Shown here one piece after another: positions 4,928-33,787 of a stretch of DNA of 64,000 nt (position 1 is its first letter; each line of letters opens with the position of its first letter). The notes under the pieces were generated by a model. That model saw nothing but the letters and a program-made list of their open reading frames with translations, was not told where the DNA came from and ran no database searches. The stretch is from Thermoanaerobaculum sp. (GTDB lineage: Bacteria > Acidobacteriota > Thermoanaerobaculia > Multivoradales > UBA5704). The translations under genes were made by a program, and so were the position numbers. The stretch is taken from positions 1-64,000 of the forward strand of contig JAJKHS010000118.1 of the NCBI GenBank assembly GCA_021154885.1, in the 5' to 3' direction.

Positions 4928-5695
4928 CTAGTCGCTCCGCTTCGCCCGCATCACAAACTCCCCCGCCAGCAACTGATACGCCATCGCCCCCTTGGCCTTG
5001 CGGTCGTACTGGAAGATCGTCTGGCCGGCGGCCGGCGCCTCGGCCAGTCGGGTGTTGACCCGGATCTCGATGGCGAAGACGAGGCTGCCGTGCTCGCTGC
5101 GCAGCTCGTCCACCGTCAGGCGGGTGCTCTTGATGCGGTAGTCCACCAGGGTGAGGAGCAGCCCCAGGGGGCGGACGCGCGAGCCGTGGTCCCAGGCCGT
5201 CCGCTCGGCCGCGGCGATCAGGTTGCACAGGCCGGTGACCGCCAGGAACTGCGGCGCCACCGGCACGACGAAGGCATCCGCGGCGACCACGGCGTTGACC
5301 GGCAGCAGCGACAGCGACGAGGGGCAGTCGAGGAAGACGTAGTCGTAGTCGCGGACGATGGGATCGAGGACCGCCTTGAGGCGCGTCTCCTTGGCCCGGA
5401 ACACCCCCAGCTCGGCCTCGGCGCGGATGAGGTCCACCGAGGCGGTGATCAGGTCCAGACCGGCGACCGACGTCCGCCGCACCGCCTGGGCCGCGGGCAG
5501 ACCGGCGAGCAGCACGTCCGCCGACGAGGGGGCGAGCCGCGCCCGGTCGACCCCCAGCGACAGCGAGGCCGACGCCTGGCTGTCGAGGTCCACCAGCAGC
5601 ACGCGCAGCCCCTGGGCCGCCAAGGCGGCCGCCAGGTTGACGGCGGTCGTGGTCTTACCGACCCCGCCCTTGCGGCTGATCAGCGCCGTAATCAT
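4928..5695 (-). CDS. parA: ParA/Soj-family ATPase, orphan
   Basis: A 255-residue ParA-type P-loop ATPase. The deviant Walker A motif KGGVGKTT is at residues 9-16, including the family's signature Lys9. Walker B FLDCPSS is at 121-127, and the Soj-type NTRLAEAP segment lies near residue 220. ParA proteins form ATP-dependent dimers on nucleoid DNA and position chromosomes, plasmids or large protein assemblies. No ParB gene and no obvious parS-like site lies beside it, so it is either chromosomal with a distant partner or an orphan positioning ATPase. It diverges from the CHAT-hydrolase gene, with 103 bases between the two start codons. Confidence 0.88.
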   Translation of the reverse strand: MITALISRKGGVGKTTTAVNLAAALAAQGLRVLLVDLDSQASASLSLGVDRARLAPSSADVLLAGLPAAQAVRRTSVAGLDLITASVDLIRAEAELGVFRAKETRLKAVLDPIVRDYDYVFLDCPSSLSLLPVNAVVAADAFVVPVAPQFLAVTGLCNLIAAAERTAWDHGSRVRPLGLLLTLVDYRIKSTRLTVDELRSEHGSLVFAIEIRVNTRLAEAPAAGQTIFQYDRKAKGAMAYQLLAGEFVMRAKRSD

Positions 5696-5798
5696 CTATA
5701 GCGGGGAATCTATACCACGGACGCTCGCGGCCGGCGCGCCACCCCGGCACCCGCCATTCCTTTATAATGGAAGAATTACTACATCCAGGAGGCTCTCC

Positions 5799-8700
5799 AT
5801 GCCTGAAGACGCCGGCAGTGTGCGAATCGTCCTTCCCTCCGCGTACGAATTCGTCGCGACACCTGGCCCGGGGCGGCGTGGGGTGGCGATTCCATCCGGT
5901 CCGATCCGCGTCGGCGGCGGTCTATCGGCGGACGAGGAGTCGGCCGTTCTCGCAGGGCTCGAACAGGGGAAGTTCCGCGTCGTGGAGGACCGCGAGGCGG
6001 CACCGCGGCCCGAGGTGGCGGCGCGGCGCGCGATGCGCGGCCCGGTCGACGAGAAGCTGCAGGTGCACGTCGATCTCGCGCCGGACGAGGACGCCGTGCT
6101 CCTCCTCGAGCAGGACGGCGTGTACGCGTGGAAGACCGACTACGTCGAACGGCCTCCGGTCGCGGCGGCGACGGTCCGCCGTGGCGGCGCCAACGTCGCG
6201 GCGTCCCGCACGGTCACGTTCGAGGTCGCCATCGATCCACAGCCGGGGGCCGCGCCGACGCGCTCGTTGAAGTCGTTCCTCTTCGGCGGCATCCGCACCA
6301 TCGTCCTGACGTTCATCGCCCGCCGGGCCGCCGGCGTGATCGCTGATCACCTCGAAGAGGACATCCACCGCGGGCTCGTCCACATGCGCGGCGACAGCGC
6401 CGCCGACTGGGTCGACGTCGCCAGCCTCGGCGACCTCGACGTGGCGACGAAAGCCGCGCCGCGCCTCCTCCTCTTCGTCCACGGCACCTTCAGCAGCACG
6501 CGCGGCAGCTTCGGCGCGCTGGCGGAGTCGCCGTGGGGGAAGACGTTCATGGCGGCGGCGCACGCCCAGTATGACGCCGTCGTCGGCTTCGATCACTCGA
6601 CGCTGCGCGACGACCCGAAGACGAACGCGACGGAGCTGCTGCGCCTGCTGCGCGAGGTGCCGTGGAAGCAGCCGCCGGGCATCGACGTCGTCACCTTCAG
6701 CCGCGGCGGCCTCGCCTACCGCTCGCTCGTCGAGCAGCTCCTCCCCGGCTCCGGCTTCGCGCCGCGGTTCGAGCGCTCGATCTTCGTCGCCGTGCCCAAC
6801 GCCGGGACGCACCTCGCCGATCCGAAGAACTGGCGCGACCTCGTCGACCTCTACACGAACCTCTCCGCCGCGCTCTTCCGCATCCTCGGCGCCTTCCCGC
6901 AGACGAAAGTCGCGTCGACGATCCTCTCCGAGGCGATCAACATCATCGGCGGGTTGGTGAAGGCGCTGACATCGGCGGCGGCGGATGGCGACGCGGTGCC
7001 GGGGCTCGCGGCGATGAATCCCGACGGCCCCTTCATCGCGCAGCTCAACGAAGTCTCGCCCGACGCGCCGACGATCGCCGGCACCTACTACTGCTACGTC
7101 ACGAGCAACTTCGAGGCGGACGCGAAGGCAGCACCGCCGAAGGAGATCCCGCCGAAGCTCTGGCTGCGCCTCGCCGACGGCTTCGTCGACCGGCTGCTCG
7201 ACAGCGCGACGAGCGACCTCGTCGTCGACACGAAGTCGGTGCCGCAGATCGACGTCGCCGCCGGCAGGTACATCAAGGAGTTTTACGAATTCCCGGCGAA
7301 TTCGTACTGCTATCACACCAACTACTTCACGCGGCCGGAGGTCGTCGGCTCGCTGACCACGTGGCTGCGGCTCACGAGGCCCGCGCATGCGGTGCGCGGC
7401 ATCCGGCCCGGCCTCACCACGATCGAGGTGCCACCCGGTTTCGACACCGACATCACGCTTGCGAACGCCAAGGATCGTCCGGAGGAGCTGAAAGCGCGGA
7501 TCGAGCACGAGGCGCCGAGCTACGTGGTCGTGCAGCGCTGGTGGAACGATCAGAAGCTGCACTACGCGTTTCCCGCCGAGGAGGTGCTGCAGCGGATCGA
7601 TGTGCGGCCGGGGGCGACGTCGGTGCTCGACGCGCTCGACCTGCACGAGAGCGATGCGTCGCAGGAAGCGGGACTCGCGGAGGTGACGCGGCCGCGGGTC
7701 GCGACGAGCTCGGCAGAGCGCTCGATTATCTTCACCAGCGGGCACCCGATCGCCGTCAGCGCCGCACCGATCACGATCGACGTCGGCGAGCTCGCGCGGG
7801 TGGCGACGGCGCCGGCGAGCGCGGAGGAGCGGGTCCTGCAGCGCCGGGTGATGCCGACCTTCGCGCCGACGCAGCGTCGCGGGATCGGGCGGGGGGTGCC
7901 GCAACAACAACAACAGCAGCAACAACAGGAACAACAACAGCGGGAGGCTCCACCCCCGCCGGCCGCCGCCCCTCCACCTCCGCCCATCTATCACTTCCTG
8001 GCGCAGATGGACCGCACCGTCGAAGTGAAGAAACCGGTCACGATAGACGTCACGATCTCGCGCGAGCAGGTCGCCGCGGCGGCCGGCAAAGCGGCCGACG
8101 GCGGCGCCGCGCCGCTGGAGCGCGACCGCAAGCTCATCCTCGAGCTGCGGCCGCGGAAGAACTTCGAGGCCGGCGGCGTGTCGCGGCTCGACCTCGACGT
8201 CGCCAGCCTCGGCGAGGAGAGCACGTACTACTTCGACGTCATACCGACGGACGTCGGCGAGGGCGAGGTGCGCGTCGTTGCGCGGCAGGGACAGACACCG
8301 CTGCTGACCATGACGCTGAAGGCGACGATCGTCGAGAAGCTGACGCGGCCGTCGACGCGCACGAGCGCCGAGGGCTCGGCCGGCGAGCCGCCGCCGTCGA
8401 AGCCATTCCACAAGCTGACGATCTGGGAGAACGAGAGGGGCGGCGAGACCGTGCTGACGTTCGAGCTCGAAGCGCCGGAGCTCGGCCTGTTCGACAAGTG
8501 GCTCTCGGCGCCGATCACAGGGGCGCGCGACGTCTACGTCCGCAAGCTCTACAAAGAGCTCGAGAGCTGCTGGGCACAGAACGCCGACGATGCCGACCAG
8601 TTCCTCACGCAGGTGCGCGCTTACGGTATGCGCCTCTTCGACCAGCTCATCCCCGAGGCCCTGCGTAAGACGCTGTGGGAGAAGCGCGACGCGATGAAGA

Positions 8701-9482
8701 GCATCATGATCGTCTCCGAGGAGCCGTTCCTGCCCTGGGAGCTCCTCCACCTGCACGCACCCGACAAGAAGACGCTGCCGGAGGAGGTCCTCTTCCTCGG
8801 CCAGCTCGGCGTCGTCCGGTGGCTGCACGGCAGTTGGCCGCCCGACCGGCTGCGGCTGCGCGACGTGCGGTACGTGATCCCCGACTATCCGGTCTCGACT
8901 TACGTGTTGCCGAATGCCGGCGACGAGCGCAAGTTCCTGGAGCAGGAGCTCGGCGCGAAGCCTGTGACGCCGCAGTTCAAGGACGTGCGCGACCTGCTGG
9001 CGACGCCGGACGGTTTCGATGTCGTGCACTTCGCCTGCCACGGCGACAACGACCCAGAGCAGATCGACGCGCGCCTGATGTTGCAGGGGCGACTGGAGGG
9101 GGAGAATTACTTCCCTTCCCTCCTGCCGGCGACGGTCGTCAGCGCGGTGTCGCGGTTCGCGGAGAACGGTCGGCACCCCATCGTCGTCCTCAACGCCTGC
9201 CAGGTCGGCAGCCAGCGCCTCGGCCTCACGACCCTCGGCGGCTTCGCGCAGGCGTTCCTCGGCGCGGGCGCGGGGGCGTTCGTCGCGCCGCTCTGGTCGG
9301 TCGGCGACCGCGAGGCGACGGTTTTTGCGCGGACGCTCTACGCCGCGCTCAAAGCGGGGAAGAGCATGTCCGAGGCGGCGGTCACCGCGCGCGAGGCGGC
9401 GCGCATGGAGCCGCAGGCGGATGCGTCGTGGCTGGCGTATGCGGTGTACGGGTACCCGCACGCGCAGGTCGAGGGTGCATGA
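5799..9482 (+). CDS. Alpha/beta-hydrolase - CHAT protease fusion protein
   Basis: A 1227-residue multidomain protein. Residues about 225-560 look like an alpha/beta-hydrolase of the lipase/PGAP1-like (DUF7379) sort: VHGT at 227-230 and a TFSRGG nucleophile elbow with Ser301. Residues 702 to about 730 are a poly-Gln then poly-Pro linker encoded by CAA/CAG repeats, followed by a beta-rich domain (about 735-870). The C-terminal CHAT domain (about 930-1227) has the caspase-like dyad, His1081 in FACHGDN and Cys1134 in LNACQVG. CHAT domains are clan CD peptidases used in bacterial immune or cell-death effectors. AGGAGG lies 6 bases before the ATG, and a TATAAT hexamer is at 5763-5768. No signal peptide is seen, so it is probably cytosolic. 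Substrates are unknown. Confidence 0.82.
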   Translation: MPEDAGSVRIVLPSAYEFVATPGPGRRGVAIPSGPIRVGGGLSADEESAVLAGLEQGKFRVVEDREAAPRPEVAARRAMRGPVDEKLQVHVDLAPDEDAVLLLEQDGVYAWKTDYVERPPVAAATVRRGGANVAASRTVTFEVAIDPQPGAAPTRSLKSFLFGGIRTIVLTFIARRAAGVIADHLEEDIHRGLVHMRGDSAADWVDVASLGDLDVATKAAPRLLLFVHGTFSSTRGSFGALAESPWGKTFMAAAHAQYDAVVGFDHSTLRDDPKTNATELLRLLREVPWKQPPGIDVVTFSRGGLAYRSLVEQLLPGSGFAPRFERSIFVAVPNAGTHLADPKNWRDLVDLYTNLSAALFRILGAFPQTKVASTILSEAINIIGGLVKALTSAAADGDAVPGLAAMNPDGPFIAQLNEVSPDAPTIAGTYYCYVTSNFEADAKAAPPKEIPPKLWLRLADGFVDRLLDSATSDLVVDTKSVPQIDVAAGRYIKEFYEFPANSYCYHTNYFTRPEVVGSLTTWLRLTRPAHAVRGIRPGLTTIEVPPGFDTDITLANAKDRPEELKARIEHEAPSYVVVQRWWNDQKLHYAFPAEEVLQRIDVRPGATSVLDALDLHESDASQEAGLAEVTRPRVATSSAERSIIFTSGHPIAVSAAPITIDVGELARVATAPASAEERVLQRRVMPTFAPTQRRGIGRGVPQQQQQQQQQEQQQREAPPPPAAAPPPPPIYHFLAQMDRTVEVKKPVTIDVTISREQVAAAAGKAADGGAAPLERDRKLILELRPRKNFEAGGVSRLDLDVASLGEESTYYFDVIPTDVGEGEVRVVARQGQTPLLTMTLKATIVEKLTRPSTRTSAEGSAGEPPPSKPFHKLTIWENERGGETVLTFELEAPELGLFDKWLSAPITGARDVYVRKLYKELESCWAQNADDADQFLTQVRAYGMRLFDQLIPEALRKTLWEKRDAMKSIMIVSEEPFLPWELLHLHAPDKKTLPEEVLFLGQLGVVRWLHGSWPPDRLRLRDVRYVIPDYPVSTYVLPNAGDERKFLEQELGAKPVTPQFKDVRDLLATPDGFDVVHFACHGDNDPEQIDARLMLQGRLEGENYFPSLLPATVVSAVSRFAENGRHPIVVLNACQVGSQRLGLTTLGGFAQAFLGAGAGAFVAPLWSVGDREATVFARTLYAALKAGKSMSEAAVTAREAARMEPQADASWLAYAVYGYPHAQVEGA

Positions 9483-12821: not shown

Positions 12822-13181
12822 GCTGGAATTTCGTTGCGTACGCTGCGCAACGGTTGCGGAGCTTAAAATTTCACTGCGCAATCCAACGCAATGGATTTTC
12901 AAGTTAAATTTTGTCTGCGCCTCCAGCGCAACGGATGTGCAGGCTAACTCAGTGCCGCGCAACCCAGCGCAATGGATTTTCAAGCTAAATTTTCGTTGCG
13001 CAGCTTCCGCAACCGTTGCGCTGGCTAAATTTTCGTTCGGAACCTCCGCAGCCGTTGCAGAGGCTAAATTTCGCCTGCCGAGGCTCCGCAACGATTGCGG
13101 AGGCTAAAACTTGCCTGCGGAGCCTCCGCACGGGATTTTCTGGCTGCGCAGGCGATACGGAGCTTCCGCAGCCGACGAGCT
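12822..13181. repeat. Array of about nine degenerate 40-bp tandem repeats
   Basis: Units of 39-42 bases follow one another, each opening with CTAAATTTTCGTTGCG-like sequence and holding a short dyad such as CTCCGCAA-CGA-TTGCGGAG. The period is not a multiple of three, so it is not a coding repeat, although long open frames cross it. The units differ at many positions. No direct repeats with unique spacers are seen, so it is not a CRISPR. It lies in the 909-base gap upstream of the ACT-like/ATPase genes. Confidence 0.75.
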
Positions 13182-13297: not shown

Positions 13298-13513
13298 ATG
13301 GAATATGAGGACCTCGTCATTCAGATCCTTCCCGGCCAGGATGGGGCTATGGCGTCGTGGTCAGTCCCCGGCGGGGCGCGGGGAAGCGGCATTTCGAGAT
13401 CCCCTCCGCCCTCGGCTCCGCGGCTCGGGGACGCTCGCGCTCGGGGCCCCGGGCCGCGACGCGGAGGCGACGACTTGGTCCGGCTTCCATCGAGGCAACA
13501 CTTCTTGCTTGAT
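13298..13513 (+). pseudogene. Broken N-terminus of a CHAT-type protein (tentative)
   Basis: An ATG at 13298 opens a short frame reading MEYEDLVIQILPGQDG. One base is then missing in the GGGG run near 13345; in the next frame the reading continues YGVVVSPRRGAGKRHFEIPS and ends at a TGA about 13513. From memory, CHAT proteins in related bacteria begin in this way (MxYEDL, then a short beta domain ending in an xxFxxPF segment). The rest of such a gene is absent. I see it as a decayed 5' fragment, but the match is short and the call is uncertain. The rest of 13181-13628 shows nothing else recognisable. Confidence 0.35.
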
Positions 13514-13628
13514 TTGCTGTAGAATTGTTCATCCGATAGCCATGAACTTATGGCCGAATGCGTTTTTTCTATGGCTGCCGCCGGTTCTTGACCAGTAAAT
13601 TTAGGGAGCGGCGCGCGGGGGGTGATTC

Positions 13629-14249
13629 ATGAAGGCAGTTGGAGATTTCCAGATCCTGCAAAAGGAAGAGACGGGGCTTCGTCTCAATGTTTCCTTCGCT
13701 ACAGCCCTCAGCATCCGTGAAGGCGTCGTCTTGTATGGAGTAGCATTGATGCCCGAGTCCTTGGCGGGAGTCTCGGCCTCGGAGGGTGCAGATACCGAAA
13801 ACCGATTGATGACCCTGATCGTCACCCCGTTTCCCCAAGCGTCCTGGGCACGGATGATCCGCATGTCGGTCACGATCGATCCCAGGCCTGGTTCTCTGTT
13901 TGGCTTGATCCAGGCCCTCAATCGACTTCAGATTTTTCCCCGCCATGTCGAGGACGTAACCGGTACCAGCTTTGCCAATGAGATGGCCTCCGCAAGCGGC
14001 ATATTTCAAGGACTCGGCGGAGAAATCGACGAGGATGACCCCATCGTGCCAAGCGCAACGTTGGTTTTGGAACTCCCTCAGCCTGGAGGAGCGAGCGGGC
14101 AGGTGGCCGAGCTGCATGAAAACCTCCACAAAATCACGGAGGACGGGAGGTCAAGTGCCGCTGCCATCCCGAAGCTCGAAGCTGCATTGGCAGGCGAGTT
14201 CGACCGAAAGGTCACTGTGCAACGCCCATGGCTACGCTCAAGAAACTGA
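13629..14249 (+). CDS. Hypothetical protein with ACT-like domain, partner of ATPase
   Basis: A 206-residue soluble protein I cannot assign to a named family. Residues about 76-115 (MSVTIDPRPGSLFGLIQALN and on) resemble the first strand and helix of an ACT domain, a small-ligand sensing fold with the DxPGxL turn. No catalytic motif or membrane segment is visible. A purine-rich GGGGGGTGA stretch before the ATG could serve as ribosome site. The last 22 bases overlap the next gene, so the two are made together. Base composition is clearly more AT-rich than in the neighbours, suggesting transfer. Possible role: ligand sensor or regulator of the ATPase. Confidence 0.6.
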   Translation: MKAVGDFQILQKEETGLRLNVSFATALSIREGVVLYGVALMPESLAGVSASEGADTENRLMTLIVTPFPQASWARMIRMSVTIDPRPGSLFGLIQALNRLQIFPRHVEDVTGTSFANEMASASGIFQGLGGEIDEDDPIVPSATLVLELPQPGGASGQVAELHENLHKITEDGRSSAAAIPKLEAALAGEFDRKVTVQRPWLRSRN

Positions 14250-16252
14250 GCAAGAGATCCCTGCAAGTGGAAAAGATCCGGATCGGCAAGTCACCTAAGG
14301 GAGACAACCTTGAAGTCAGCCTGCAAACATGGCGACGAAAGTTGTGGCGTCCGAGTTCGCGTGTCCCATCCAGCGAGTCACTGAGCGGTAATGACGGGAT
14401 CATCCTCGCAATGGCTTCCTGGGATTCCGATGAGAAGATAATCGCGTGGTATTTTTATCAATATGCTGATCGTGTCGTGGTGCAGTTCGAGATGACAGTC
14501 CCAGCCCTCGGTCTCGAGCACCTCTGGTGGGAGTACATATATGATTGCTTGCGAATCGCCCGGGGAACCGTGCTTGGCAGCGCGAGCTCGGCGCGCATCG
14601 ACGGTCGCTGGGGAGTACTCCAGTGCACCGCGATGTTTCCCCTGAAAGACTCTCCCGACCAGGAAGTCGAGAACATTCGGAGAATAGTTCATTGCTTCCG
14701 GAAGTTACAAGGAGATGCTAGCTCGACGGCCGAGTTCGAGGAGTTCAAGCAACGCTTGGCTCGTGAGCAGGAACTGGTCGGGCCCAGGATATTGTCGGAA
14801 AAAGCAGAAGAAAATTGGAAGAAAAAGAGCTTGAATTACTCGAGTCAGCTTGAGAGGTTGATGGTACGGGACCCTTTCGAGAACTCTCCGGCGCCGCGTT
14901 TCTCTCATCTGTTCGCGGAAAACCCGTTTAGCTTCACCCACCCTCTGGGACTAAAGAAATACAAGCAATTGTACGGGGAGCTGGAAGCGGCGCGAACGCA
15001 GCGCACGCGGCGTCGCCTAGCGGAGAGTATTATAGAGAAGTTATTGCAGGCGTCAGGAGACAACATCGCGATCGTGGGCGCTCATCGCGCGGGGAAGACT
15101 ACCGTTCTCAGCCTGATTTACGATCTGCTGGTCGAACGCCTCAAGGAGGAAACCGATGATGTCACCCTCATCCCGATTCGAATCAACGCGTCGGTGACTC
15201 CTCCTTATATGCTATTTGCCGCTATCCTGGAGGAGATGTCCCTCCTGAAAAAAGGAACGGAAAAGCTGGCAGGCTCGTTGCGCGGATTTTTCACAAAGCT
15301 CTCCAATTTTTCGCAGGCCGTTCTTTCGGGTGTCGAGTTCAAACTGGGGCCGATGATGGTGAAGCCTGGCGACATTTTGGAGGTTGCACACCTCCCTTCG
15401 CCAGAAGGGACGAGCCACATCGACGAGAGACTCCGCAGGGTTTTGGTTCGGGTTGAGAAGGAAAAAGAAATTATGCCGGAGCTTCTCAGGGTTTCCCTTC
15501 TCTCGCTGAGTGATGCACTAAGCGCGGATAAAGCAGATAAGTTTCATTTGGTGGTTGTGATGGATGAATTTTCAGACTCGACTGCATGGGGTGACGCGAG
15601 GATACTTCCTGTCTGGCGCCATGCCATCGAGTTCGACGAAATTTCGCGCATTAAGTGGCTATTTTCGACCACGCGACCCGTGAGCGAAGCCGCCGGTTAC
15701 TCTCCGATTACCAACATATTTCTCGAAATCAACGTTGGCTCTCTTCGTAAAGAGGAGAGTCAAGGGCTGATCGACGCTTTTTCGGTCACGGCCTGGAAAG
15801 ATGATCGGCAGGGAACCAAGCCGCTCCAGCCGGTGATAACTCACCCGGCAAGAACATTTCTCATCAGTGTTACGAGCAGCCTGCCGTATCTCCTTCAGGT
15901 GTCCTGTTACCACATCTACGATCGAGCTACCCGCACCAGTTTCCCTTTGATCAACAAGGAGCTTTGCAGAAAAACTATTCTGGTCAAGGTTTTGCCTGAG
16001 ATGGCGGACTATCTCGAGCGTCAATGGAGCAAGATCCCGGAGAGCGCGCAGCGGTTTATTGTGGAATCTTTGCCGACCGCCCTAAGCCCAGATGAATTCC
16101 TGAGATTTTTCGACGATCGATGGATAGTGGATTTGGATCGGATGCCGCCGGGTTCTCTCAAGGCCCTGGACCGATCTGGATTGCGGGGTGAAGACGGTCG
16201 ATGCGTAGCGCCGCTGGTGGCTGCCTGGCTGCTGTCGCGCCAGATGCAATGA
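14228..16252 (+). CDS. STAND/AAA-type P-loop ATPase with unknown N-terminal domain
   Basis: A 674-residue protein. Residues 50-165 form an alpha/beta N-terminal domain of unknown kind, followed by a charged helix (about 165-215). The P-loop GAHRAGKTT is at 284-292 with Lys290; Walker B VVVMDEFSD has Asp446-Glu447; a sensor-1-like WLFSTTRP follows; and the LPYLLQVSCYHIYDRA segment near residue 560 matches the helical part of STAND NTPases. The last 80 residues could be a winged helix. STAND ATPases act as oligomerising switches in signalling and phage defence. The gene overlaps the ACT-like gene by 22 bases and has the same AT-rich composition. No nuclease or protease effector is fused, so the effector, if any, is unknown. 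Confidence 0.68.
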   Translation: MATLKKLSKRSLQVEKIRIGKSPKGDNLEVSLQTWRRKLWRPSSRVPSSESLSGNDGIILAMASWDSDEKIIAWYFYQYADRVVVQFEMTVPALGLEHLWWEYIYDCLRIARGTVLGSASSARIDGRWGVLQCTAMFPLKDSPDQEVENIRRIVHCFRKLQGDASSTAEFEEFKQRLAREQELVGPRILSEKAEENWKKKSLNYSSQLERLMVRDPFENSPAPRFSHLFAENPFSFTHPLGLKKYKQLYGELEAARTQRTRRRLAESIIEKLLQASGDNIAIVGAHRAGKTTVLSLIYDLLVERLKEETDDVTLIPIRINASVTPPYMLFAAILEEMSLLKKGTEKLAGSLRGFFTKLSNFSQAVLSGVEFKLGPMMVKPGDILEVAHLPSPEGTSHIDERLRRVLVRVEKEKEIMPELLRVSLLSLSDALSADKADKFHLVVVMDEFSDSTAWGDARILPVWRHAIEFDEISRIKWLFSTTRPVSEAAGYSPITNIFLEINVGSLRKEESQGLIDAFSVTAWKDDRQGTKPLQPVITHPARTFLISVTSSLPYLLQVSCYHIYDRATRTSFPLINKELCRKTILVKVLPEMADYLERQWSKIPESAQRFIVESLPTALSPDEFLRFFDDRWIVDLDRMPPGSLKALDRSGLRGEDGRCVAPLVAAWLLSRQMQ

Positions 16253-16475
16253 TCAGACCAACGACGCATTCTACAGTGTTTCTTTGTTGTCCGTGACCCA
16301 GCGCATCCGATCTCGGCGACCATCCGCCGGCCCTCTGCTTCATCGGCAGACGGTGGAGCTGTCGCCTCTATAGAAGATAAAAATCGTCATCGAGAGATGA
16401 AGAGCACGGTACCTCACATCAGACTAAACTTTCGGGGGGCTGTCAACGCAGATCTTCAGGCCTGAAGGGCCGTTC

Positions 16476-16621
16476 TCCCTCAGCCTGGGGCGCAGCCCCA
16501 GGAAGAGAGTCCCCCAAATCTCAAAGCCCTGAAAGGGCGAGATAACGGCCGGATCGCGCCCCGTTGGGCTTTCGGAATGTTTTAGATTTCGTTTCCTGGG
16601 GCTGTGCCCCAGGCTGAGGGA
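16476..16621. repeat. Inverted pair of 29-bp palindromic repeats, family D
   Basis: The sequence at 16476-16504 and its inverse at 16593-16621 match at 28 of 29 positions, each arm being itself a CCTGGGGC/GCCCCAGG hairpin. Between them are further small palindromes such as GCCCTGAAAGGGC. It fills most of the 407-base gap between the ATPase gene and the dehydratase; no gene is seen there. Similar CCTGGGGCnnnGCCCCAGG elements are known in Planctomycetota and other environmental genomes. Confidence 0.8.
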
Positions 16622-32567: not shown

Positions 32568-32641
32568 TTGCGTCTCGACAGTACCAATTCTGTTGACCGA
32601 TGCCAGGGAGTCGGAGTAAACTCTCGATGAGGATAACCGAG

Positions 32642-33202
32642 ATGGCGCTGCTGAAGGACTACAAAGACCTCTGGATGACGGGCGAGGAGCTCTTCCGCCG
32701 CCCCGATCTCAATCCCTGCGAGTTGGTGAACGGAAGGGTCGTGCCGACGATGCCGACGGGCGGTAAACATGGGGAGATAGAGCTCGAGCTGGGGGCGAGG
32801 CTGCGTTCCTATGGCAAGGAATTGAAGCGCGGTCGGGCTTTGGGCGGCGAGGTCGGGATCTACATTCGCCGTGATCCGGACACGGTGCGCGCGGCCGACC
32901 TTCTGTATATCTCCGAAGAACGCTTTGCCCGGCTCCGTTCGCCTGGCTATCTCGAGATTGCACCTGAGCTCGTGGTTGAGATCCTCTCCCCCGATGATCG
33001 TTGGAGCGAGGTGATGGAGAAGGTCTCCGACTACTTCGAGGCTGGGGTGGTGCGAGTCTGGGTCCTGGATCCCAAACCGCGTCGGGTCTTCGTATACCGC
33101 TCGCCAGCGGAGTTCGTGCAACTCGAGGCGGCGCAGATTCTGACCGATGAGGAGATTCTGCCGGGCTTCAGCGTTCTGGTCGCGGAGCTGTTTCCGAAAT
33201 AG
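32642..33202 (+). CDS. Uma2-family PD-(D/E)XK nuclease-like protein, copy 1
   Basis: A 186-residue Uma2 (DUF820) protein. The restriction-endonuclease-like core shows ADLLYIS, PELVVEILSPDDR, and the Lys in VMEKVSDYF, ending in VRVWVLDP. Members are abundant in cyanobacteria and other environmental bacteria; their function is poorly known and they may be transposon-associated nucleases. It is followed after 15 bases by a paralogue whose first 40 and last 80 residues are nearly identical. The ATG matches the paralogue's; an earlier ATG at 32627 is less likely. Confidence 0.85.
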   Translation: MALLKDYKDLWMTGEELFRRPDLNPCELVNGRVVPTMPTGGKHGEIELELGARLRSYGKELKRGRALGGEVGIYIRRDPDTVRAADLLYISEERFARLRSPGYLEIAPELVVEILSPDDRWSEVMEKVSDYFEAGVVRVWVLDPKPRRVFVYRSPAEFVQLEAAQILTDEEILPGFSVLVAELFPK

Positions 33203-33217
33203 GCGGGGGAACCTGAG

Positions 33218-33787
33218 ATGGCGCTGCTGAAGGACTACAAAGACCTTTGGATGACGGGCGAGGAGCTCTTCCGCCGCCCCGATCTCAATCCCTGCGAGCT
33301 GGTGAACGGAAGGGTCGTGCCGACGATGCCGACGGGTCCTGGTCACGGTGCCATCGAAGCCAAGCTCACTACACGCCTCACGATCTGGGTGGAGGCGACT
33401 GGAAAGGGGGAGGTGGAGGTAGGAGAGGTCGGCATTTTCATTCGGCGCGATCCGGATACGGTGCGCGCTGCTGACATCCTCTTCATCTCCCATGAGCGCC
33501 TGGCCCGGCGTGCGTCCAGCGGTTATCTCGACATCGCTCCTGAGCTCGTGGTCGAGATTCTCTCTCCCGACGATCGTTGGAGCGAGGTGATGGAGAAAGT
33601 CTCCGACTACTTCGAGGCTGGGGTGGTGCGAGTCTGGGTCCTGGATCCCAAATCGCGTCGGGTCTTCGTGTACCGCTCGCCGGCGGAGGCCGTGCAGCTC
33701 GATGCAGGGCAGGTTCTGACTGATGAGGAGATTCTGCCGGGCTTCAGTGTTCTGGTCGCGGAGCTTTTCCCAAATAGTGCTCGGTAG
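33218..33787 (+). CDS. Uma2-family PD-(D/E)XK nuclease-like protein, copy 2
   Basis: A 189-residue tandem paralogue of the preceding gene. The first 120 or so bases differ from copy 1 at only about two positions, and the last third is also nearly identical, but the middle (residues 41-65) is unrelated in detail. The catalytic residues are kept. This pattern suggests duplication with gene conversion at the ends, or replacement of the middle. Confidence 0.85.
   Translation: MALLKDYKDLWMTGEELFRRPDLNPCELVNGRVVPTMPTGPGHGAIEAKLTTRLTIWVEATGKGEVEVGEVGIFIRRDPDTVRAADILFISHERLARRASSGYLDIAPELVVEILSPDDRWSEVMEKVSDYFEAGVVRVWVLDPKSRRVFVYRSPAEAVQLDAGQVLTDEEILPGFSVLVAELFPNSAR

What the first reader, a model, noticed from the sequence alone, without database searches (positions are those of the whole stretch)
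13298..16252. AT-richer two-gene unit: ACT-like protein plus STAND ATPase
Two genes overlapping by 22 bases, with base composition unlike all neighbours, encode a 206-residue protein with an ACT-like segment and a 674-residue STAND/AAA ATPase with a new-looking N-terminal domain. A broken CHAT-like fragment and a tandem repeat array lie just upstream. Sensor plus STAND switch is the layout of several bacterial defence and conflict systems, but I do not know this pair. It lacks a recognisable effector, which may be the unknown N-terminal domain.
Basis: partly seen in the sequence, partly recalled or inferred. Interest (0 to 1): 0.7.

Follow-up and report, generated by a model that had tools for sequence, protein, structure and literature searches.

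The report
Rare ACT-like plus STAND switch pair
Two overlapping bacterial genes encode what looks like a small sensor domain and a molecular switch ATPase, found so far in only one other genome, where they are fused and sit beside a possible TIR effector, so this is probably a rare, acquired immune-type switch whose function is unproven.

Summary
Genes at 13629-14249 and 14228-16252 (+) overlap by 22 bases and lie in the two most AT-rich kilobases of the window. Gene 1 has a modestly supported ACT-like fold. Gene 2 is a P-loop ATPase of STAND-like layout. A CHAT-like N-terminal remnant lies upstream but is supported only weakly. One relative was found, in an Acidobacteriota MAG. There both genes are fused into one 964-residue protein (34% and 33% identity), which ties them functionally. 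The fusion lies in a two-gene AT-rich island with a TIR-like protein, a plausible effector, among unrelated genes. My reading: a horizontally acquired sensor-plus-STAND switch of the bacterial NLR-like kind, whose effector is a separate neighbouring gene. In the window no intact effector adjoins it, so it may be orphaned, or may work with another of the genome's many CHAT proteins. Defence is inferred from one neighbour, island behaviour and family analogy; no antiphage evidence exists. New variant of a known kind; moderate interest.

The parts
13629..14249 (+). gene 1, 206 aa, ACT-like protein
   Evidence: ORF; residues 1-175 are 34% identical to residues 1-177 of the fused relative
13800..14228 (+). 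ACT-like domain of gene 1 (about residues 58-200)
   Evidence: AlphaFold2 model, ten-residue blocks of the core at mean pLDDT 65-81; VIA Z 5.6 to the GL3 ACT-like domain, 79 aligned, rmsd 3.3, and several ACT-bearing enzymes below, among other rows of similar Z that are not ACT
14228..16252 (+). gene 2, 674 aa, STAND-type ATPase
   Evidence: ORF; residues 60-670 are 33% identical to the fused relative
14228..14249 (+). 22-base overlap of the two genes, in different frames
   Evidence: coordinates
14375..14737 (+). N-terminal domain of gene 2 (about residues 50-170), conserved in the relative, no known family
   Evidence: alignment; elements beta-beta-alpha-beta-beta-alpha in a model with pLDDT under 50 there; no sequence kinship to the gene 1 domain
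15077..15103 (+). Walker A, GAHRAGKTT (residues 284-292)
   Evidence: sequence; one residue differs in the relative
15548..15568 (+). Walker B, ending MDE (residues 441-447)
   Evidence: sequence; D446 and E447 invariant
15872..15901 (+). GxP-like motif TSSLPYLLQV (residues 549-558; TSGLPYLLQV in the relative)
   Evidence: alignment; its PY..Q aligns with PY..Q of an nSTAND1-type protein
13298..13430 (+). probable remnant of a CHAT-protein N-terminus, broken by a frame change
   Evidence: three-frame reading; similar start in one intact CHAT protein of the same genome

Best explanation
The pair is a sensor-plus-switch module of the STAND (bacterial NLR-like) kind. Gene 1 carries an ACT-like domain, and gene 2 a further small N-terminal domain in front of a STAND ATPase that probably ends in a winged helix (my reading of the C-terminus). 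Shown or well supported: the two proteins belong together (fused in a relative), gene 2 is a P-loop ATPase with a STAND-like layout and intact Walker residues, and the unit sits as an AT-rich island in unrelated surroundings in both genomes. Inferred: the two proteins form one complex; the ACT-like and N-terminal domains sense a ligand or invader protein; sensing allows nucleotide exchange and oligomerisation; the oligomer then activates a separately encoded effector, a TIR-like (presumed NAD-consuming) protein in the relative and, in the window, either a lost CHAT neighbour or a CHAT protein encoded elsewhere. The likely outcome is abortive, immune-type cell death or dormancy.
For: Natural fusion of both halves in G029, 964 aa. 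Profile-profile match to an alignment holding an nSTAND1 protein over 227 columns, probability 96.2, E 2.2e-9, running through Walker A, Walker B, the SP..N.F.E..VG motif and PY..Q; that nSTAND1 protein (L011), the only one of the three rows tested, scores 32.2 bits against a cut-off of 27.1. The ABC-ATPase control aligned only around the P-loop, 61 columns. ACT-like fold matches. In G029 the fusion and the TIR-like gene have GC 0.458 and 0.462, against 0.60-0.65 for the six neighbours measured. TIR_2 E 0.012 and CAP12/Pycsar TIR E 0.057 for that protein's C-terminal 162 residues. Scattered distribution: 1 of 97 other relatives, 0 of 395 others of a phylum sample in which at most two candidates per genome were scored.
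Against: Only two genomes hold it, so the TIR-like neighbour is a single case. No match to the PADLOC defence models beyond P-loop stretches. The TIR hits and gene 2's AAA_16 hit are below their gathering cut-offs, and no ACT model is listed. The middle part of the TIR-like protein hits alternative oxidase (E 0.011, 15.9 bits, cut-off 22.7) better than GAF_2 (E 0.094), so 'GAF' is very weak, and the PDB gives that protein nothing sensible. A second group of STAND-like ATPases matched weakly (probability 2.7, E 0.017; the group's Pfam scores are near or below cut-offs), and the ABC control reached probability 95.0 and E 3.9e-8, so neither figure alone separates STAND from other P-loop proteins; the length and the motifs do. 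Immediate neighbours in the window are a MATE transporter and a PLP-dependent enzyme, not defence genes. The CHAT remnant's stretch has GC 0.61-0.66, nearer the host than the pair's 0.50-0.59, against its having arrived with the pair.
Confidence: 0.5

Rival explanations
1. A metabolic or transcriptional regulator: the ACT-like domain senses an amino acid or similar metabolite and the STAND ATPase with its winged helix regulates genes, as in MalT-like regulators (recalled), with no link to phage defence.
For: The fold matches of gene 1 include ACT-bearing amino-acid enzymes (aspartate kinase, phosphoglycerate dehydrogenase). A PLP-dependent enzyme (Pfam PALP; threonine-dehydratase type by my reading) lies next door. 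My reading of the C-terminus is a winged helix.
Against: The pair is rare and island-like in both genomes, with unrelated neighbours in the relative; the PLP enzyme runs on the opposite strand; the gene acquired with it in the relative looks TIR-like, not metabolic.
Confidence: 0.22
2. A decaying, non-functional leftover: the window copy was once a single fused gene, is now split by a frame change and has lost its effector. A base error in the assembly could give the same split.
For: The relative is one continuous gene; the upstream CHAT fragment is broken; there is no evident ribosome-binding site just before the gene 2 ATG (own reading of the sequence printed).
Against: Both ORFs are otherwise open over 880 codons with Walker A, Walker B and many motif residues intact. 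The junction itself shows no significant homology to the fusion (648 of 2000 and 925 of 2000 shuffles score as high), so a simple recent frame change is not shown; overlapping start and stop is also normal translational coupling.
Confidence: 0.2
3. The gene 2 N-terminal domain is itself the effector.
For: It is conserved in the relative and matches no Pfam family, and several known STAND proteins carry their effector N-terminally (own knowledge).
Against: In the fused relative it sits in the middle, between the ACT-like part and the ATPase; I saw no known catalytic signature in it; a separate TIR-like candidate lies next to the fusion.
Confidence: 0.08

Closest known systems
nSTAND1-type STAND NTPases (Pfam PF20703), e.g. 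the TPR-bearing AAA protein in locus L011
   Same: P-loop, Walker B, SP..N.F.E..VG motif and PY..Q align over 227 columns
   Different: gene 2 itself scores for no STAND family in Pfam; it has a different N-terminus, no TPR hit, and an ACT-like partner
Bacterial TRADD-N systems (eLife 2020 e52696, passages read; eLife 2021 e70394, passages and section 8 read)
   Same: small RRM/ACT-related domain linked to variable modules that include STAND NTPases and caspase-like peptidases, mostly in cyanobacteria
   Different: the two proteins here share no Gly/Ser motif in a beta2-beta3 turn; they have about 32 residues there
Avs antiphage STAND proteins (recalled)
   Same: STAND switch architecture
   Different: no repeat region after the ATPase (gene 2 ends about 116 residues after PY..Q) and no recognised N-terminal effector
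CAP12/Pycsar-type TIR effectors (Pfam PF10137; function recalled)
   Same: weak TIR-like score of the neighbour in the relative
   Different: the TIR-like part is a separate protein, below Pfam cut-offs, and the window genome has no relative of it at E 0.001

Membership tests
STAND NTPases | P-loop with Walker A and acidic Walker B | tested here: met
   GAHRAGKTT and MDE in the window; the lysine, threonine and DE are invariant in the pair of sequences
STAND NTPases | Module-long profile relation to a named STAND family | tested here: met
   hhalign to alignment A5, which holds an nSTAND1 protein: 227 columns, probability 96.2, E 2.2e-9; ABC control 61 columns only, though probability 95.0, E 3.9e-8; a second STAND-like group gave probability 2.7
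STAND NTPases | Score over the Pfam cut-off of a STAND or AAA_16 model | tested here: not met
   gene 2: AAA_16 18.4 bits against 32.6, no nSTAND hit listed; the relative: AAA_22 25.6 against 27
STAND NTPases | GxP motif in the helical domain (recalled) | tested here: inconclusive
   GLP in the relative, SLP in the window
STAND NTPases | C-terminal winged helix | not tested
   own reading of residues about 600-670 only; the model there has pLDDT under 50
ACT domain | beta-alpha-beta-beta-alpha-beta fold | tested here: inconclusive
   model core blocks pLDDT 65-81; ACT-bearing chains among the VIA rows at Z 3.2-5.6, best rows Z 7.4 to 6.5 to a large glutamate dehydrogenase, and non-ACT rows (ribosomal protein S6 permutants Z 4.0-5.4, RNA polymerase subunits Z up to 3.8) of similar Z; Z under 8 may be only a common arrangement
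ACT domain | Match to an ACT family model | tested here: not met
   no Pfam family for gene 1 at E up to 10; one PDB profile hit at E 0.15, 2f06, recalled as a tandem-ACT protein
TRADD-N domain | tiny residue plus Ser in the beta2-beta3 turn | tested here: not met
   no such motif shared by the two proteins; about 32 residues instead of a turn; feature taken from PMC8195603
Avs | C-terminal repeat sensor (recalled) | tested here: not met
   no Pfam repeat hit for gene 2; the protein ends about 116 residues after PY..Q
Known antiphage systems (PADLOC) | match to a PADLOC model | tested here: not met
   best E 0.014 (PifA, window) and 0.003 (PDC-S01, relative), P-loop stretch only

The most novel reading that the evidence does not exclude
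An undescribed immune switch in which ACT-like sensor domains gate a STAND ATPase, made as one protein or as an overlapping pair, with exchangeable separate effectors (TIR-like in one genome, CHAT formerly or in trans in another), so that a small-molecule or protein-sensing domain of metabolism guards against infection.
Probability: 0.25. Interest if true: 0.65.

Novelty: new variant of a known kind. Interest (0 to 1): 0.42.

Why it matters
STAND proteins are the bacterial relatives of NLR immune receptors. A version with an ACT-like domain in the sensing position would suggest a metabolite or a new protein surface as the trigger, and the fused and split forms give two ready test constructs. 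In the held library the words 'STAND NTPase' and 'ACT domain' occur together in one paper only, which mentions ACT as a structural relative of TRADD-N.

Tried and rejected
Single-protein scans of genome and viral contigs with P0002 gave no relative; the alignment scan of genome contigs gave only the relative's own record, with just two peptide patterns, so it is not exhaustive; viral scans with A2 and A3 gave none. Plasmids: none for P0002, P0003, P0004. Phages: none for P0002, P0004. Genome searches, own genome counted: 2 of 98 relatives; 1 of 396 of the phylum sample, the own one, with at most two candidates scored per genome; 2 full-length of 72 in the order plus one weak STAND hit; 2 full-length of 148 in the class at E 0.1, with at most five candidates scored per genome, plus weak hits in 17 further genomes, of which I looked at nine loci: three STAND-like, the others ABC, KAP-like and other P-loop proteins by my reading; 0 of 41 in another class, which the tool says shows nothing by itself; the ACT part alone, 2 of 148 plus 2 weak; the TIR-like protein, 1 of 148, its own genome.

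The whole-length model of the fusion failed (mean pLDDT 34.6) and was not used for fold search. The idea that gene 2's N-terminal domain is a second ACT domain rests on its strand/helix order only: hhalign against the gene 1 domain scored 12.3, and 51 of 200 column shuffles scored as high. The idea that gene 1 and gene 2 are one gene split by a single frame change: junction homology not significant. Empty site: the relatives of the PLP enzyme in 10 genomes are 45% identical at best, so I named no syntenic site. The tandem array as part of the system: rejected as specific, since similar arrays lie on three other contigs of the genome, one just before a gene with a CHAT domain and a TIR-like start (my reading), two between other genes. 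Two weak DNA matches of the CHAT remnant that I looked at (L023, L026) showed no CHAT protein start. Foldseek alone gave no match at E 0.001 or better for gene 1; no TRADD-N or acylphosphatase row is among the 50 shown by VIA, which excludes nothing. Paper searches were seen as listings only.

Full report
Observation. The window holds two open frames on the + strand, 13629-14249 (206 aa) and 14228-16252 (674 aa), overlapping by 22 bases. They lie in the two most AT-rich of 64 one-kilobase windows (0.550 and 0.525), with GC3 0.64 and 0.63. In my list of 44 selected ORFs of the window these are the lowest two GC3 values, but that list admitted other ORFs only if GC3 exceeded GC2 by 0.25, so it is biased. 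Flanks are a MATE transporter on the left and a PLP-dependent enzyme on the right, both on the - strand.

The relative. A search of 98 related genomes (own included) found one other, G029, which is the Acidobacteriota MAG OFTM328, contig JAJCXR010000028.1. There a single 964-residue gene carries both parts in the same order: gene 1 residues 1-175 match residues 1-177 at 34% identity, E 1e-24, and gene 2 matches from residue 299 on at 33%, E 3e-101 (two-sequence E-values). A phylum sample of 396 genomes, own included, gave only the own genome, with at most two candidates scored per genome. A profile search of 148 genomes of the class gave the same two full-length cases. So the family is rare in what could be searched, and the scans of larger collections were limited by their peptide patterns.

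Island. In G029 the fusion and the gene before it on the same strand (446 residues from the first possible start, 246 bases between the ORFs) have GC 0.458 and 0.462 and GC3 0.43-0.45; the six neighbours measured have GC 0.60-0.65 and GC3 0.73-0.82. They are a YtoQ protein (Pfam), and by my reading of the sequences a PKD-like protein, two ABC transporter parts, a sigma-54-type regulator and a protein kinase. The 446-residue protein has TIR_2 (E 0.012) and CAP12/Pycsar-TIR (E 0.057) hits in its C-terminal 162 residues; its middle part hits alternative oxidase (E 0.011) and GAF_2 (E 0.094); all are below Pfam's cut-offs. It also meets an uncharacterised phage family, phrog_3634, at E 0.0005. PDB sequence searches gave nothing or only chance-level RNA polymerase hits. 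I read it as a TIR-like effector candidate, perhaps with a GAF domain; this is one instance.

What the proteins are. Gene 1: no Pfam, NCBIfam, PADLOC or PHROG family. A model from two sequences has mean pLDDT 58.9, with ten-residue blocks of the core at 65-81. VIA-align puts a large glutamate dehydrogenase first (Z 7.4, rmsd 3.3, 95 aligned), then the plant GL3 and maize R ACT-like domains (Z 5.6 and 5.2), with ribosomal protein S6 permutants in between (Z 5.4 and lower), aspartate kinase regions (Z about 4), RNA polymerase subunits (Z up to 3.8) and phosphoglycerate dehydrogenase (Z 3.5). Foldseek alone has no significant hit. A sequence profile's only PDB hit is 2f06 at E 0.15, which I recall as a tandem-ACT protein. 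I call this ACT-like with fair, not full, confidence. Gene 2: residues about 232-600 are a P-loop ATPase. The profile of the window and G029 copies aligns to a three-row alignment holding an nSTAND1 protein (32.2 bits, cut-off 27.1) over 227 columns through all landmarks. An ABC-ATPase control aligns only around the P-loop, though with probability 95.0 and E 3.9e-8, and a second group of STAND-like ATPases is weak, probability 2.7 (its two members tested score nSTAND1 at 21.9 bits or not at all). Hence STAND rests on the extent and motifs of the alignment. The N-terminal domain of gene 2 remains unassigned; its sequence shows no relation to the gene 1 domain.

Upstream matters. The CHAT-like remnant begins at 13298; the genome holds 38 CHAT-domain matches, one of them inside this window (8628-9452) in a protein with Pfam TCAD7, DUF7379, DUF7363 and DUF7362 domains. 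The remnant's composition is nearer to the host than to the pair, so it may be a host gene damaged at the insertion place rather than the pair's lost partner. The 40-base array has relatives on three other contigs.

Mechanism and status. Best reading: a STAND switch whose ACT-like and N-terminal domains sense or adapt, and whose output goes to a separate effector. The fusion, the ATPase and the island are shown; the complex, ligand, oligomer, effector link and the defence role are inferred. The main rival is a metabolic regulator; the window copy may also be a decaying one. Literature: the two eLife papers on bacterial conflict systems were read in passages and one section. In the held library, 'STAND NTPase' and 'ACT domain' occur together in one paper, and the passages read do not describe a pair like this; this does not show that the pair is absent from print elsewhere.

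Noticed in passing
window 5358-9482 (+): Large intact CHAT protein with TCAD7, DUF7379, DUF7363 and DUF7362 domains, which looks like a conflict-system gene, 4 kb upstream of the pair; its start is uncertain.
   Followed up: partly
whole own genome: 38 CHAT-domain matches in one 8.2 Mb genome, several in clusters, e.g. three on the window's own contig at 88.6-99.8 kb.
   Followed up: no
window 16458-16502 (-): Acido-Lenti-1 RNA (Rfam RF01687, 40.2 bits) at the right edge of the AT-rich island, within a stretch holding a CTGGGGCGCAGCCCCAGG palindrome and a near copy of it at 16595.
   Followed up: partly
window 12826-13146: Array of about 40-base units with partly palindromic sequence; related arrays on contigs C101, C32 and C55 of the own genome, the last just before a CHAT-domain gene with a TIR-like start.
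   Followed up: partly
window 32600-33787: Two adjacent genes with nearly the same N-terminal sequence that look like Uma2-type nucleases (own reading), in the second AT-rich dip.
   Followed up: no
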